Translations under genes and position numbers: made by a program
Assembly (NCBI RefSeq): GCF_006337165.1
Contig: NZ_CP040896.1
Coordinates: forward strand, 930,001 to 994,000
Source of the DNA: Hymenobacter jejuensis
Lineage (GTDB): Bacteria; Bacteroidota; Bacteroidia; Cytophagales; Hymenobacteraceae
Length of the DNA: 64,000 bases
Direction of reading: 5' to 3'
Shown here: positions 19,948 to 59,299 of the stretch, piece by piece
How positions within the stretch are numbered: the stretch's first letter is position 1
Layout of the letters: every line of letters begins with the position of its first letter
The notes under the pieces: generated by a model
Databases searched by the model: none
Seen by the model: the letters and a program-made list of their open reading frames with translations, nothing else
Told to the model about the DNA's origin: nothing

Positions 19948-19950
19948 CTG

Positions 19951-20035
19951 CAGAGGAGGAGGGATTCGAACCCCCGGAGGTTTAACCCTCAACGGTTTTC
20001 AAGACCGCCGCAATCGACCACTCTGCCACTCCTCT
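19951..20035 (-). tRNA. tRNA-Ser (anticodon UGA)
   Basis: 85 nt. The acceptor arms AGAGGAG and CTCCTCT pair, with discriminator G. The D-arm region, a long class II variable arm and the GGTTCGAATCC T-arm are present. The anticodon loop CTTGAAA gives anticodon TGA, reading UCA-type serine codons. CCA is not encoded. It follows the second tRNA-Ser by about 60 nt. Confidence 0.95.
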
Positions 20036-20094
20036 GAATGGCTGTTCGCTTAAGATACTTGCAAAGGCTTTTCAGCGAACGAAAAAGCCAGTTG

Positions 20095-20181
20095 CAGAGA
20101 GGGGGGGATTCGAACCCCCGATACCCTTGCAGGTATAACGGATTTCGAATCCGTCGCATTCGACCACTCTGCCACCTCTCT
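20095..20181 (-). tRNA. tRNA-Ser (anticodon CGA)
   Basis: 87 nt. The acceptor arms AGAGAGG and CCTCTCT pair, with discriminator G, a class II variable arm and the GGTTCGAATCC T-arm. The anticodon stem ACGGA/TCCGT encloses loop TTCGAAA, anticodon CGA, reading UCG. CCA is not encoded. It lies upstream of tRNA-Ser(UGA) and is probably co-transcribed with it. Confidence 0.95.
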
Positions 20182-51251: not shown

Positions 51252-51438
51252 AATAGGGATGGATTGAGGAATTGTGTAAAGGGAAAAATGAGCTAGCCCG
51301 AATTGACTTGCAGGATAAATTTCTGTAACCCCCGCGTCTGGCTCATCGTTAAGCTAACCAAGTCAGCGATACCAGCTTCCTTTCCAACTGCTGGTATGTG
51401 TGACTGTTATTCTCCCTTTCACATAACTATCCACCCCC

Positions 51439-52203
51439 ATGAACACCAACGATTCAATCAACCCGACGAATTCAGGCACTGGCTCAGGCGCAAACTATGG
51501 TACTGGCTCGGCCGGTAGCGGTTACGGCACAGGCAGCGAAGCCAGTTCGAGCGGCAATATGAGTAATTCTACCACTGGCGATTCTAGCTTGGCTGGTTCT
51601 ACCGGTTCTACTTCTTCAAGCACTACTTCAGGTTCTAACCTGTCGGGCAGCAGCGACTCTTCTTATAGCTCAACTTCGGGCTCTACCTCGGGTGGCATGC
51701 TGACCAGCACGTTCAAAGACCGTGACAGCGCCGAGCGTGCTTACAACTCACTATCGTCGCGCGGTTACGGCAAAGACGATGTGAACTTGCTCATGTCGGA
51801 TGAAACCCGCAAAAAGCATTTTGGCGATAATACTCCTGATACCGACCTAGGCGACAAGGCCATGGAAGGCGCTGGCGTAGGTTCGGCCATTGGTGGTACT
51901 GCCGGTGCCGTAATCGGCGCTATCGCGGCCATTGGTACTTCAGTAGCCTTGCCAGGCTTGGGCTTGGTGATTGCAGGCCCGATTGCAGCTGCCTTGGCAG
52001 GTGCCGGTGCGGGCGGTCTGACGGGTGGCTTAGTAGGCGCTCTAGTAGGCTCGGGCATCCCAGAAGATCATGCTGCTCAGTATGAGAGCGATATCAAAAA
52101 CGGCGGCATCGTAATGGGCGTGAAACCCCGCAACGACGAAGACGCTCGTTATTTCGAAGATGAGTTCCGTCGCAACCAAGGCGACCGTGTAGCTCGTTTT
52201 TAG
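51439..52203 (+). CDS. General-stress-like protein with Ser/Gly/Thr-rich tail and glycine-zipper region
   Basis: A 254-residue protein. Residues 1-88 are low-complexity Ser/Gly/Thr/Asn with repeated TGS/GSGS/TSGS units. Residues about 88-125 (MLTSTFKDRDSAERAYNSL, GYGKDDVNLLMSDET) resemble YflT/general-stress-type domains. Residues about 140-205 form a Gly/Ala-rich hydrophobic segment with GxxxG repeats, and the C-terminus is soluble (EDARYFEDEFRRNQ). It may associate with membranes; role in stress is inferred. Start at 51439. Confidence 0.7.
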   Translation: MNTNDSINPTNSGTGSGANYGTGSAGSGYGTGSEASSSGNMSNSTTGDSSLAGSTGSTSSSTTSGSNLSGSSDSSYSSTSGSTSGGMLTSTFKDRDSAERAYNSLSSRGYGKDDVNLLMSDETRKKHFGDNTPDTDLGDKAMEGAGVGSAIGGTAGAVIGAIAAIGTSVALPGLGLVIAGPIAAALAGAGAGGLTGGLVGALVGSGIPEDHAAQYESDIKNGGIVMGVKPRNDEDARYFEDEFRRNQGDRVARF

Positions 52204-56057: not shown

Positions 56058-56065
56058 TACCTTTG
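56058..56065 (+). promoter_or_regulatory. Bacteroidota -7 promoter box of lysS (TACCTTTG)
   Basis: An exact TAnnTTTG match 24 bp before the lysS ATG; a weak -33 candidate TCTG lies 21 bp upstream. It argues against the upstream TTG start at 56063, which would overlap the box. Confidence 0.5.
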
Positions 56066-56089
56066 CAGGCTTATTCAACGACACTCCCC

Positions 56090-57652
56090 ATGCAGCACCT
56101 CAGCGAACAGGAACAGATACGCCGCCAGAAGCTGGAGGAACTTCAGAAGCTCGGCATCGAGCCGTATCCTTCCGAGCTATTCGATGTGAATTTTTACGCC
56201 CAGGAAATTCTGGACAACTACCATCCTGAACTCAACAACTTCCAGGACGTGAGTCTGGCCGGCCGGGTGATGTCGGTGCGCGTGAAAGGCAAGGCTTCGT
56301 TTGCGGAACTGCAGGACGCTTCGGGCCGCATTCAGCTCTACATCAACCGCGACGAAATCTGCCCCGGCGACGACAAAGAGCTGTATAACACCGTGTTTAA
56401 GAAGCTGCTGGACCTCGGCGACTTCATTGGGGTAAAAGGCCGCGTCTTCGTGACGATGGTAGGCGAGACGTCTATCCACGTCACTGGCTTCACGCTGCTT
56501 AGCAAGAGCTTACGCCCGCTCCCCGTAGTGAAGGAGCGCGTTGACGAAGCTACTGGCGAAAAAATCACCTACGACGCCTTCACCGACCCCGAGCAGCGCT
56601 ACCGCCAGCGCTACGTCGATCTGGTCGTCAATCCGCAGGTGCGCGACACCTTTATCAAGCGGACGCAACTGGTGCAAGCCATGCGCAACTACCTGAACGA
56701 CAAAGGCTACTTGGAAGTAGAAACTCCCATCTTGCAGCCGTTGTACGGCGGGGCCGCTGCCCGCCCCTTCAAGACGCACCACAACACGCTGGACATGACG
56801 CTGTACCTGCGCATTGCCAACGAGCTGTATCTCAAGCGGTTAATTGTGGGCGGTTTCGACGGCGTGTATGAGTTCTCGAAGGACTTCCGCAACGAAGGCA
56901 TGTCACGCTTCCACAACCCCGAGTTCACCCAGATGGAGCTCTACGTAGCCTACAAAGACTACTATTGGATGATGGACCTCGTGGAGGAAATGGTCGAGCG
57001 CGTGGCGATGGAGCTACACGGGAAAACGGAAGTACAAGTCGGTGAGAACCTGATCAACTTCAAGCGGCCGTGGCAACGTTTCACTATGTACGAAGCCATC
57101 CAGCACTTTTCAGGCGTCGACATTTCGGAAATGGACGAAGCGGGCTTACGCGAAACTGCCGCCAAGCTGCACGTGCCACTTGACCCCAGCATGGGCAAAG
57201 CCAAAATCATCGACGAGCTATTCGGCGAGCTGTGCGAGCCAAAGCTGATTCAGCCGACTTTCATCACCGATTACCCCGTCGAGATGTCGCCGCTGGCCAA
57301 AAAGCACCGCTCCAAGCCCGGCTTGGTAGAACGCTTCGAAGCGATCTGCAACGGCAAGGAAATCTGTAATGCGTTCTCAGAACTCAATGACCCCATCGAC
57401 CAGCGCCAGCGCTTCGAAGACCAGTTGGAACTGGGCAAGCGCGGCGACACCGAAGCGATGGTGCTCGACGAAGATTTTCTGCGCGCCCTAGAATACGGCA
57501 TGCCGCCCACCGCGGGCCTGGGCATAGGCATCGACCGCCTGAGCATGATCATGACCAACTCCAACTCGATTCAGGATGTGCTCTTCTTCCCGCAAATGAA
57601 GCCCGAGTACACCAAGTCGGAAAACGCGCCCAAAACGGAAGCGCCGAAGTAA
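56090..57652 (+). CDS. lysS: Lysine--tRNA ligase, class II
   Basis: A 520-residue enzyme. The N-terminal OB-fold anticodon domain (about 60-160) includes [19 protein letters not shown]. The class II core has motif 1 near [20 protein letters not shown], motif 2 [15 protein letters not shown] and motif 3 [11 protein letters not shown]. The start at ATG 56090 fits the family N-terminus. It charges tRNA-Lys in the cytosol. A 14-bp terminator stem follows the stop by 24 bp. Confidence 0.97.
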
Positions 57653-57672: not shown

Positions 57673-57909
57673 ATCGAAAAGCCTCCCGCGCATGTCGCGG
57701 GAGGCTTTTCTTTTAAAAACTAACTTTTCAGCAGAAAGGAAAACGTGAAGAAACTTGCGATGGGCAAACACGATTTTGCTACCAGGTTAATTAAAACCAA
57801 CCCCTGATAGAAGCTCTACCGCCGGCAATTTTACTTCGAATTACTTTCCGATCTTCTTCTAAGTCGGTTATGGCTTCTTTTACGGAGAGGGCTAAGCTAT
57901 TGTTGCAAA
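57673..57909. repeat. Direct repeat unit 1 (hairpin plus ~165-bp body)
   Basis: Homologous to 58008-58244 at an offset of 335 bp, sharing hairpin, GAAGAA-CTTGCGATGG, AGAAGCTCTA, GGCAATTTTACTTC, AAGTCGGTT and GTTGCAAA blocks in order. Identity is roughly 70% by eye. On the minus strand there is an open frame of about 40 codons ending at 57791 but no start codon. Confidence 0.75.
57677..57713 (+). terminator. Terminator of lysS
   Basis: A 14-bp perfect stem (57677-57690 with 57696-57709), 5-nt loop and T-run to 57713. It is also part of direct-repeat unit 1, and on the opposite strand it has its own T-tract. Confidence 0.85.
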
Positions 57910-58007
57910 CTGAGCAATAATTTTATAACATATTTACAACTAATTGACTATCAATTATTTGCAATAACTCAGTTAGTCTGAGATGCAATGTATACAAGCC
58001 CAGAAAA

Positions 58008-58244
58008 ACGAAAAGCCTCCTGCGGTAATCGCAAGAGGCTTTCCTACTAATCAACTGACTTACCCTTCCAATCGGGGTACTTAGAAGAAGCTTGCGATGG
58101 ACTGATACGATTTTACAAGTAGGCTAGTAAACCAAAACCTACGAGAAGCTCTATCACTCGGCAATTTTACTTCTGAAACCTCACCGATTTTCTTTCAAGT
58201 CGGTTGTGAAGTGGTTTACGAAATTGGAAGACGAGGGTTGCAAA
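58008..58244. repeat. Direct repeat unit 2
   Basis: Second copy of the 57673-57909 unit. The hairpin (58012-58024 with 58030-58042) has one G-U/mismatch and a T-tract on the minus strand. The frame seen in unit 1 is interrupted by stop codons here. It ends 18 bp before the stop of the YtxH gene. Confidence 0.75.
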
Positions 58245-58261: not shown

Positions 58262-58699
58262 CTACAAACCTTGGCCGTAGCTGCTGGCGCCTGGGCGCCC
58301 GAGGCCTCCGTCGGGAGCGTCGTCGCCACCTACGTCGCTGAGGCTGGTGCCGCTAGGCGATTGGGTGGAGGCGATGCTGCGGTCGTCGGGGCTGGTGACG
58401 GGTTCGGCGCCGTGGTGCGAGCCCGTACCGGTATCGCCGGCCATGGACTGGAGTACTTCGTCGGCTGCCGATTGCCCGGCGGGCTGTTGGTCGCCGGTGG
58501 CGCTGCCTTTGAGGTCGTTTACGCGGGCGAGGCCGTCTTTGAGCAGCTTGCTGAGGTCGTCGCCCAGCTTAGCAGCCGACTTTTTGAGGCCGCTGCGGGT
58601 TTCGTCGCCGGTTTCGGGCGCCAGCAACAAGCCAGCAACGATGCCCGCTGTTGCGCCGGCGAGCAGGGAGAGAATTACTTTGCCACTGTTGTCTTTCAT
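58262..58699 (-). CDS. YtxH domain-containing protein
   Basis: A 145-residue protein beginning MKDNSGKVILSLLAGATAG, a short membrane-spanning YtxH segment with GLLLAPETGDETR, then a helical section (KKSAAKLGDDLSKLLKDG) and a low-complexity hydrophilic C-terminus rich in Ser, Asp and Gly. YtxH-domain proteins are small, general-stress-associated and of unknown mechanism. The ATG at 58699 matches the paralogue at 59299. It is downstream of that paralogue with a terminator between. Confidence 0.85.
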   Translation of the reverse strand: MKDNSGKVILSLLAGATAGIVAGLLLAPETGDETRSGLKKSAAKLGDDLSKLLKDGLARVNDLKGSATGDQQPAGQSAADEVLQSMAGDTGTGSHHGAEPVTSPDDRSIASTQSPSGTSLSDVGGDDAPDGGLGRPGASSYGQGL

Positions 58700-58799
58700 A
58701 GTAGGTAGGCGTGAAAAAGGATGGAAGCGTTGGAGGAAAGCCAACTTGCCGTGCTTGGCTGTTGGTGTACTAACGGCTTGGCCGGAAACTGGGTTGAAA

Positions 58800-58834
58800 A
58801 AAAAGCCTTTCTCAAAGTATGAGAAAGGCTTTTT
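58800..58834 (-). terminator. Terminator of the YtxH-CsbD gene
   Basis: A 15-bp perfect stem (58800-58814 with 58820-58834), 5-nt loop, followed on the minus strand by a run of Ts. Confidence 0.88.
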
Positions 58835-58864: not shown

Positions 58865-59299
58865 TTACAAGTCGTTCAGGATCTTAGTGATTTCCTTTTT
58901 GCCTTTGCCAAGCTTTTGTTGCAGACGGCCCAAAAGGTCGTCTTCTTGGCCTTCCACGTAGTTCAGATCGTCGTCGGTGAGCTGGGCATACTGCTGACGC
59001 AATTTGCCTTTGGCCTCGTCCCAGCTGCCTTTCAGCTTGAGGCCGCTGCCAGCACCCGTAATGCCCAGATCTTCAAGCTTTTCCATGTAGCCTTTGAATT
59101 GGGTATCGAGTTGCTCGCCGTATTTGGAAAGCTGCTCGCCGAGTTGGCCGCTATATTTGGTGGCTGCGTTTTTCAGATTGTCGCGGGTAGCTTTGCCTTT
59201 GTCGGGGGCCATCAGCATACCGGCAATGATGCCAGCACCGGCACCAGCAAGAGCGGCGAGAAGGATTTTACCCGAGTTGTCTTCTTCGTGATACGACAT
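58865..59299 (-). CDS. YtxH domain fused to a CsbD-like domain
   Basis: A 144-residue protein. Residues 1-40 are a YtxH-type start (EDNSGKILLAALAGAGAG, MLMAPDKGKATRDNL), residues 45-85 are helical, and residues about 86-144 match the CsbD-like pattern (LKGSWDEAKGKLRQQY, LTDDDLNYVEGQEDDLLG, RLQQKLGKGKKEI). CsbD proteins are abundant stress proteins of unknown function; the fusion would tether such a domain to the membrane. It is paralogous to the next gene over its first 40 residues. Confidence 0.85.
   Translation of the reverse strand: MSYHEEDNSGKILLAALAGAGAGIIAGMLMAPDKGKATRDNLKNAATKYSGQLGEQLSKYGEQLDTQFKGYMEKLEDLGITGAGSGLKLKGSWDEAKGKLRQQYAQLTDDDLNYVEGQEDDLLGRLQQKLGKGKKEITKILNDL

What the first reader, a model, noticed from the sequence alone, without database searches (positions are those of the whole stretch)
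57673..58244. Pair of diverged 237-bp direct repeats, each with a terminator hairpin
Units at 57673-57909 and 58008-58244 align in order with conserved blocks and equal offset (335 bp). Each carries a hairpin with the same AAAGCCTCC stem, which on the minus strand is followed by a T-tract (TTTTCGTTTTT or TTTTCGATTTTT), so the units could be tandem small RNAs read leftward. Alternatively they are decayed copies of a short gene, since unit 1 has an open ~40-codon frame without a start and unit 2 has stops in it.
Basis: partly seen in the sequence, partly recalled or inferred. Interest (0 to 1): 0.6.

Follow-up and report, generated by a model that had tools for sequence, protein, structure and literature searches.

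The report
Twin stress-promoter small RNAs in Hymenobacter
The two diverged repeats look like a pair of small RNA genes, each with its own stress-type promoter and terminator and folding into one long hairpin, kept at the same place in almost all Hymenobacter genomes examined and apparently not described before.

Summary
In detail: two 237-bp units (71% identity, E 2.8e-18), the only two copies found in this Hymenobacter genome. They are not decayed genes. Each is a complete minus-strand RNA cassette: a sigma-ECF-like promoter (AAC-N15..17-CGT), a ~155-nt unbranched hairpin and an intrinsic terminator, about 205 nt of RNA. I collected 71 homologous copies in 54 loci: 71 of 71 have the promoter boxes (67 with the -10 box exactly 8 nt before the core), and 71 of 71 a terminator hairpin. 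The hairpin has strong covariation: 88% of cells paired against 31-44% when slid, and 528 both-side changes against 72-118. In an order-wide model search 32 of 32 same-genus genomes have it; 52 of 54 loci lie between ytxH and lysS. No Rfam match. The same promoter precedes a YflT-like stress gene 6-7 kb away; in a genus scan 22 of 26 promoter hits were one or the other. Most likely a pair of stress-induced regulatory RNAs; two inverted copies of one conserved internal loop suggest a symmetric protein partner (inferred). A divergent RNA of similar build sits at the same locus in a sister genus. Expression, sigma factor and target are untested.

The parts
58215..58241 (-). sigma-ECF-like promoter of copy A (ytxH-proximal): GCAAC-N16-CGTAAA; AAC box 58239-58237, CGT box 58220-58218
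   Evidence: AAC...CGT in 71 of 71 homologues
58051..58210 (-). core hairpin (rod) of small RNA copy A; predicted start of transcript near 58210
   Evidence: model R2 138.0 bits; covariation
58003..58042 (-). intrinsic terminator of copy A (hairpin with AAAGCCTC stem, then TTTTCGTTTTT on the minus strand)
57879..57906 (-). sigma-ECF-like promoter of copy B (lysS-proximal): GCAAC-N17-CGTAAA; CGT box 57884-57882
57716..57874 (-). core hairpin (rod) of small RNA copy B; predicted start of transcript near 57874
   Evidence: model R2 113.4 bits
57669..57710 (-). intrinsic terminator of copy B (15-bp perfect hairpin, then TTTTCGATTTTT)
56063..57652 (+). lysS (lysyl-tRNA synthetase), convergent neighbour on the 3' side; found there in 53 of 54 loci
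58262..58705 (-). ytxH-like gene, neighbour on the 5' side in the same direction in 52 of 54 loci
   Evidence: Pfam YtxH 1.8e-13
51324..51352 (+). same promoter element TGTAACC-N16-CGTTAA in front of the YflT-like gene
51439..52200 (+). YflT-like stress protein gene sharing the promoter type (Pfam YflT 4.5e-4, below the curated cut-off)

Best explanation
The repeats are two tandem, paralogous small-RNA genes on the minus strand. SHOWN by sequence comparison: each is a self-contained unit of sigma-ECF-like promoter, a ~155-nt unbranched hairpin ('rod') and an intrinsic terminator, predicting RNAs of about 205 nt. The rod is under selection for base pairing, and the gene (single or in tandem) sits at the ytxH-lysS junction in nearly all Hymenobacter loci examined. 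The promoter is shared with a nearby YflT-like stress gene, so the RNAs probably belong to the same stress regulon. INFERRED: a sigma-ECF factor switches the RNAs on under stress; transcription starts about 8 nt after the CGT box, a few nt before the rod's first strand. The rod then acts by binding a protein rather than mainly by antisense pairing. Its most constant parts are two copies of one internal loop (GYAAAAU facing a strand ending UUC) placed in opposite orientation about one helical turn apart, as expected for a two-fold symmetric protein. My split: small RNA gene ~0.97, ECF-type promoter ~0.9, stress regulon ~0.75, protein-binding mode ~0.4.
For: Homologues: 34 full copies in 26 loci, then 71 copies in 54 loci, one locus per genome. 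Structure: RIBOSUM consensus -66.9 kcal/mol against -8.6 +/- 3.0 for 50 column shuffles; three random splits give essentially the same rod. Pair counts on a structure-blind alignment: 88.3% of cells paired and 528 cells with both-side changes; slides of 1-3 columns give 31-44% and 72-118 cells; 0 of 500 shuffles reach any measure. Promoter: AAC-N15..17-CGT in 71 of 71, CGT to core 8 nt in 67 of 71; 32 of these copies (in L095-L123) were found by a core-only model. Terminator in 71 of 71 (70 by pattern, L059 by eye). Regulon: TGTAACCN{15,16}CGTTAA has 26 hits in 41 genus genomes against 4 for the reversed control; 15 precede the YflT-like gene, 7 are this RNA, 4 are elsewhere. In the 64-kb window the relaxed motif occurs only at the two RNAs and the YflT-like gene. 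Distribution: 32 of 32 same-genus genomes among 36 hits in 291 genomes of the order. Synteny on both sides 52 of 54. Sister genus: the type-B copies L145 and L146, not used to build their model, carry promoter boxes and terminator. Published parallels: a CGT -10 box read as sigma-ECF in Flavobacterium (PMC9723704, passages), a non-canonical promoter driving the GibS sRNA in Bacteroides (PMC7366714, passages).
Against: No transcript data. Upstream of 26 Sigma70_r2 matches in this genome the motif is found twice, with ~2.5 expected, so the sigma factor is not identified and no autoregulation is seen. ytxH itself lacks the motif (0 of 52). In the own genome the looser motif is rarer than its reversed control (9 vs 32). 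Single-sequence folding is only modestly better than shuffles (z -2.0 and -3.2), the MFE of copy B does not form the rod, and the plus strand scores z -3.1. RNAalifold without RIBOSUM on 71 sequences omits the two outer helices, although it found them with 34. The structure was derived from the alignment on which it was counted. The number of pairs with some both-side change (31 of 46) is less telling than the cells: shuffles give 24.6 and slides 18-26. One pair of helix 1 is unpaired in 28 sequences and helix 2 is only 77% paired. The UUC-side strand is AGCUUC in 64 of 71 copies in one module but only 38 of 71 in the other. The protein-binding mode rests on conservation and symmetry alone.
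Confidence: 0.78

Rival explanations
1. The RNAs are the Hymenobacter form of 6S RNA: a long hairpin with a central bubble that traps RNA polymerase, in two paralogues as in Bacillus (Bacillus parallel recalled).
For: Rod of similar size and unbranched shape with large loops between helices 1, 2 and 3, presence in 32 of 32 same-genus genomes, two paralogues in part of the genus, and no Rfam 6S hit elsewhere in the relatives searched. A Bacteroides 6S with pRNAs is known (PMC7366714, passages).
Against: The conserved ECF-like promoter would be unusual for 6S (recalled); the most conserved parts are twin small internal loops away from the bubble; no 6S family appears at permissive thresholds. 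The Rfam negatives are weak: RF00013 rang in 5 of 14 controls, none of them a Bacteroides (one was presumably in the set, as), and RF01685 rang in no control.
Confidence: 0.12
2. ECF-induced trans-acting antisense RNAs that repress envelope or other mRNAs by base pairing, as RybB and MicA do under sigma-E in enterobacteria (recalled).
For: ECF-type promoter and Rho-independent terminator; GibS is a Bacteroides sRNA from a non-canonical promoter (PMC7366714, passages; its action on mRNAs recalled); the variable apical loop and internal-loop strands could expose seeds.
Against: Most of the RNA is in a covarying rod, leaving no long conserved single-stranded seed at the 5' end. No target search was run.
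Confidence: 0.35
3. Decayed or duplicated copies of a short protein gene.
For: A 43-aa open frame without a start in unit 1; 20 of 71 copies have at least one of six frames open over the whole core.
Against: Longest open stretches equal shuffles (44 vs 43 aa) and gap runs are mostly not multiples of three; strong covariation; promoter and terminator tightly flank the rod.
Confidence: 0.01
4. A mobile or repetitive intergenic element with palindromic ends, such as a small inverted-repeat element.
For: Repeated unit with a strong palindrome; in one genome (G206) the RNA sits about 114 kb from lysS.
Against: Only two full copies in the genome, fixed synteny in 52 of 54 loci, no plasmid or phage match at E 1e-5, no viral-contig match of one exact core pattern.
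Confidence: 0.02

Closest known systems
GibS small RNA of Bacteroides thetaiotaomicron (PMC7366714, passages read)
   Same: Bacteroidota intergenic small RNA with a non-canonical promoter (PM2); such promoters were later proposed to be read by ECF factors SigW-1 and SigH-1 (PMC12596196, passages read)
   Different: No sequence comparison with GibS was made; the PM2 motif is near-palindromic; GibS targets mRNAs (recalled); this RNA is a rod, often in tandem
6S RNA (Rfam RF00013) and 6S-Flavo (RF01685)
   Same: Long unbranched hairpin of similar size; paralogues occur in some species (recalled)
   Different: No Rfam match; ECF-type promoter; conserved twin internal loops instead of a promoter-like bubble
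SM6 sigma-ECF promoters of Flavobacterium psychrophilum (PMC9723704, passages read)
   Different: SM6 drives T9SS and Band-7 genes under low nutrients; no small RNA is tied to it in the passages seen
sigma-E-dependent RybB/MicA small RNAs of enterobacteria (recalled)
   Same: Small RNAs made from an ECF promoter with an intrinsic terminator as part of a stress regulon
   Different: Those are short, Hfq-dependent, with single-stranded seeds; this one is a rod

Membership tests
Structured small RNA family of Hymenobacter (new) | Compensatory changes supporting one secondary structure | tested here: met
   528 cells with both-side changes vs 72-118 slid; 31 of 46 pairs vs 24.6 shuffled; 0 of 500 shuffles
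Structured small RNA family of Hymenobacter (new) | Own promoter and terminator at fixed distance | tested here: met
   71 of 71 promoter boxes, 67 at 8 nt, 71 of 71 terminators
Structured small RNA family of Hymenobacter (new) | A transcript of the predicted size | not testable with these tools
   no RNA-seq available
sigma-ECF-dependent transcription unit | -35 AAC box and -10 CGT box about 16 nt apart, conserved against a variable spacer | tested here: met
   invariant AAC and CGT columns in 34 copies, spacer columns 0-0.4 bits apart from its first bases; 71 of 71
sigma-ECF-dependent transcription unit | Cognate ECF gene identified (often autoregulated) | tested here: not met
   2 motif hits upstream of 26 Sigma70_r2 matches, ~2.5 expected; lowers the claim of which sigma, not of the promoter type
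6S RNA | Match to RF00013 or RF01685 | tested here: not met
   0 of 39 and 0 of 41 genomes; controls weak for this phylum
6S RNA | Binds housekeeping RNA polymerase and templates pRNAs | not testable with these tools
   needs biochemistry
Any Rfam 15 family | Gathering-score match | tested here: not met
   none at the locus; best permissive hit there 25.1 bits against a cut-off of 50; none over its cut-off in 20 of the 26 loci with full copies
Antisense (base-pairing) small RNA | Conserved exposed seed complementary to mRNAs | not tested
   structure leaves little unpaired sequence; no target search run

The most novel reading that the evidence does not exclude
A Hymenobacteraceae-specific class of stress-induced decoy RNAs: a rod carrying two inverted copies of one internal-loop binding site that captures a dimeric regulator (an RNA-binding protein or part of the transcription machinery), duplicated and diverged at least twice, and represented in sister genera by a different rod under the same promoter at the same locus.
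Probability: 0.3. Interest if true: 0.8.

Novelty: new variant of a known kind. Interest (0 to 1): 0.62.

Why it matters
Small-RNA regulation in Bacteroidota outside Bacteroides and Flavobacterium is little studied (recalled). This is a compact test case: an RNA found in every same-genus genome of an order-wide sample, with a well supported structure model, a defined promoter and a likely regulon mate. It offers a handle for finding which ECF factor runs a response that includes a YflT-like protein, beside YtxH and CsbD proteins, in a genus known for radiation and desiccation tolerance (recalled). The repeated inverted internal loop makes a specific, testable prediction about a symmetric protein partner.

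Tried and rejected
Rfam at gathering and permissive thresholds: nothing credible. At the locus 13 of 14 permissive hits overlap a terminator hairpin. In 20 other loci the lowest E-value is 9.9e-6, a microRNA precursor family below its gathering score starting at the very end of the L025 terminator; some other hits lie outside the RNA. Protein-coding reading rejected. Mobile-element reading rejected. Autoregulated ECF gene as the source of the promoter: not found. ytxH as a member of the promoter regulon: 0 of 52. 6S: inconclusive, kept as a rival. Distant homologues: R2 found the RNA only in the own genus (3 of 395 genomes of the phylum); R1 only in three genera of the family (36 of 291 genomes of the order); both scans used strict filters that lose weak matches. 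The downstream-of-lysS region of five g23 genomes holds no such RNA. On checking, I asked whether blastn-negative same-genus genomes lack the RNA: see full report. Wehner et al. 2014 on 6S RNA was not held. Papers: searches for Hymenobacter with 'small RNA' (7 papers), Hymenobacter with 'sRNA' (4), mixed ncRNA terms, 6S/Bacteroidetes, Cytophagales with 'noncoding RNA'/'covariance model', ECF/CsbD/YtxH, ECF/sRNA and EcfO gave no description of this RNA in the listings and passages seen.

Full report
WHAT WAS CHECKED. The two units are real. The region holds collinear repeat blocks at offsets of 334-337 bp; unit 1 finds unit 2 at 71% identity, E 2.8e-18, and no other full copy in the 5.09-Mb single-contig genome. 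The genus is inferred: an exact core pattern hits 58 records among 84,980 species genomes, all titled Hymenobacter or Hymenobacteraceae, and seven contigs of genomes that the tool calls 'same genus' have exactly the lengths of seven of those records.

HOMOLOGUES. blastn found matches in 27 of 59 genomes, the own one included: 26 of 37 of the same genus, many as close pairs, and one outside (G045) that covers 28 bases at the terminator. Profile iteration over 27 loci gave 34 full copies in 26; G045's locus gave none. A covariance model of the core only (R1) found the RNA in 36 of 291 genomes of the order: 32 of 32 of the same genus (one, G243, by a partial match), 1 of 1 in genus g24 and 3 of 3 in g26, but 0 of 5 in g23, 0 of 4 in g25 and none in other families. 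The 46-pair model R2 found it in 3 of 395 genomes of the phylum, all of the own genus. Both broad scans used strict filters. Of the 11 same-genus genomes without a blastn match, six do have the RNA: G012 and G014, G021 and G032 (loci L059 and L056), G003 and G034 (121 and 118 bits). For G005 and G020 the stretches fetched hold no lysS and so say nothing; G028, G035 and G036 were not searched with a model. I collected 71 copies in 54 loci, one locus per genome; six of the 36 matched genomes gave no locus because of the cap and are not among them. In the 58 records, R2 finds 80 copies, 22 records with two; these overlap with the earlier genomes.

STRUCTURE. The consensus is one unbranched rod. 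On the structure-blind MAFFT alignment A4 of 71 cores, RIBOSUM-scored RNAalifold gives -66.9 kcal/mol against -8.6 +/- 3.0 in 50 column shuffles, and three random splits into halves give essentially the same rod. Counting pairs: 46 pairs, 88.3% of cells paired, 528 cells with changes on both sides; slid by 1-3 columns the figures are 31-44% and 72-118; none of 500 shuffles reaches any of the five measures. Pairs with at least one both-side change are 31 of 46, against 24.6 in shuffles and 18-26 in slides, a weaker contrast. Against the model: the structure was derived from the same alignment; without RIBOSUM the two outer helices drop out on 71 sequences, though they were found with 34; helix 2 is 77% paired, one pair of helix 1 is unpaired in 28 sequences, and single-sequence folding is only modestly better than shuffles.

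TWIN MODULES. The most conserved parts are two copies of an internal loop in opposite orientation: GYAAAAU on one strand facing a strand that ends in UUC, once at alignment columns 49-55/136-141 and once at 110-116/70-75. GYAAAAU is present in 69 of 71 copies at each place; both GYAAAAU strands plus both UUC strands in 68 of 71. The facing strand is AGCUUC in 64 of 71 in one module but in only 38 of 71 in the other, where ACAUUUC-like forms are common, so the symmetry is imperfect. A CAUC bulge lies between them in 63 of 71. The spacing of about one helical turn is my estimate from the structure. That this is a two-fold symmetric protein site is inference.

PROMOTER AND TERMINATOR. Upstream of the rod, 34 aligned copies have invariant AAC and CGT triplets with a spacer of low information. 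Over all 71 copies the spacing is 15 (1), 16 (49) or 17 (21) and the CGT ends 8 nt before the core in 67, 9 in 2 and 10 in 2. Four loci (L048, L056, L057, L059; five copies) were fetched by a promoter pattern and are not independent; 32 copies (in L095-L123) were found by a model that holds no promoter. AAC and CGT boxes at this spacing are the hallmark of sigma-ECF promoters (established knowledge, recalled); a CGT -10 box was read the same way in Flavobacterium (PMC9723704, passages). A terminator hairpin is present in all 71 (70 by pattern, one by eye in the same output).

REGULON. TGTAACCN{15,16}CGTTAA gives 26 hits in 41 genus genomes against 4 for the reversed pattern. Of the 26, 15 begin 85-124 nt before the ATG of a gene starting MNTND or MNTNE, 7 are this RNA and 4 are elsewhere, the control level. 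The gene has a weak YflT (heat-induced stress protein) match, below the curated cut-off. It lies 6-7 kb from the RNAs in this genome. In 13 other genomes of the family there are 12 hits against 5 control hits: 5 at type A or B RNAs by position, 4 before a gene that resembles the YflT-like one by eye, including one genome of g23, where the RNA was not found, and 3 elsewhere. In the own genome the looser pattern GYAACN{16,17}CGTWAA is not enriched (9 hits against 32 control), so motif presence alone is not evidence; position and conservation are. ytxH lacks the motif (0 of 52) and the sigma genes do not have it beyond chance.

LOCUS AND HISTORY. lysS lies convergently on the 3' side in 53 of 54 loci and ytxH on the 5' side in the same direction in 52 of 54. 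The exception G206 carries the RNA about 114 kb from lysS, with its own promoter and terminator. 17 of 54 loci hold two copies 265-336 bp apart. In a midpoint-rooted FastTree tree, 15 of 17 lysS-proximal copies form two clusters (11 and 4 copies, support 0.88 and 0.89) apart from the ytxH-proximal and single copies, while in the two tandem g26 loci both copies group together (0.82). The simplest reading is at least two duplications; gene conversion is not excluded. In four g25 genomes and in G206 (g24) the lysS-downstream site holds a different RNA, type B, which R2 does not detect at E 5. A promoter-like element was found by pattern in the four g25 loci; in G206 only a looser AAC-N15-CGT is seen by eye. 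Its model R3, built from these five, finds 5 of 291 genomes of the order, the same five, none in Hymenobacter, plus two unlinked copies in G227 and G257 that were not used to build it; both have AAC-N16-CGT and a terminator in place. Whether types A and B are homologous is open; some copies of each share promoter and start, CGTTAAAGAAGATATAAC.

NOVELTY. Nothing in Rfam 15, in the plasmid, phage or viral collections as searched, or in the paper listings seen describes it. ECF-driven small RNAs are a known kind; the family, its rod and the inverted twin modules are new as far as these searches go.

LIMITS. No expression data, no identified sigma factor, no partner. 6S cannot be excluded: RF00013 rang in 5 of 14 controls, none a Bacteroides (a Bacteroides is in the control list), although a Bacteroides 6S is known (PMC7366714, passages). 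On checking I changed counts and wording, not odds.

Noticed in passing
window 51324-52200 (+): YflT-like low-complexity gene behind the same ECF-like promoter as the small RNAs; the promoter-gene pair recurs in the genus, in g26 and in one g23 genome.
   Followed up: partly
L128-L132 (downstream of lysS), L145, L146: A second, divergent RNA type with a similar promoter, a long closing stem (13 pairs in model R3) and a terminator in sister genera g24 and g25.
   Followed up: partly
window 58865-59299 (-): Protein combining YtxH and CsbD domains, next to the ytxH gene: a small cluster of general-stress-type proteins.
   Followed up: no
window 58800-58834: Perfect 15-bp hairpin AAAAAGCCTTTCTCA/TGAGAAAGGCTTTTT between the two ytxH-type genes, probably a terminator.
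   Followed up: no
window 19950-20181 (-): Two adjacent serine tRNA genes with different anticodons (tga and cga).
   Followed up: no
L125, L126 just after the lysS stop: Long inverted repeats (GTAGCGCGG...CCGCGCTAC) between lysS and the RNA, looking like small inverted-repeat elements.
   Followed up: no
L206, L214: In two g25 genomes the promoter element also precedes a gene for a secreted-type protein of 423-430 aa.
   Followed up: no
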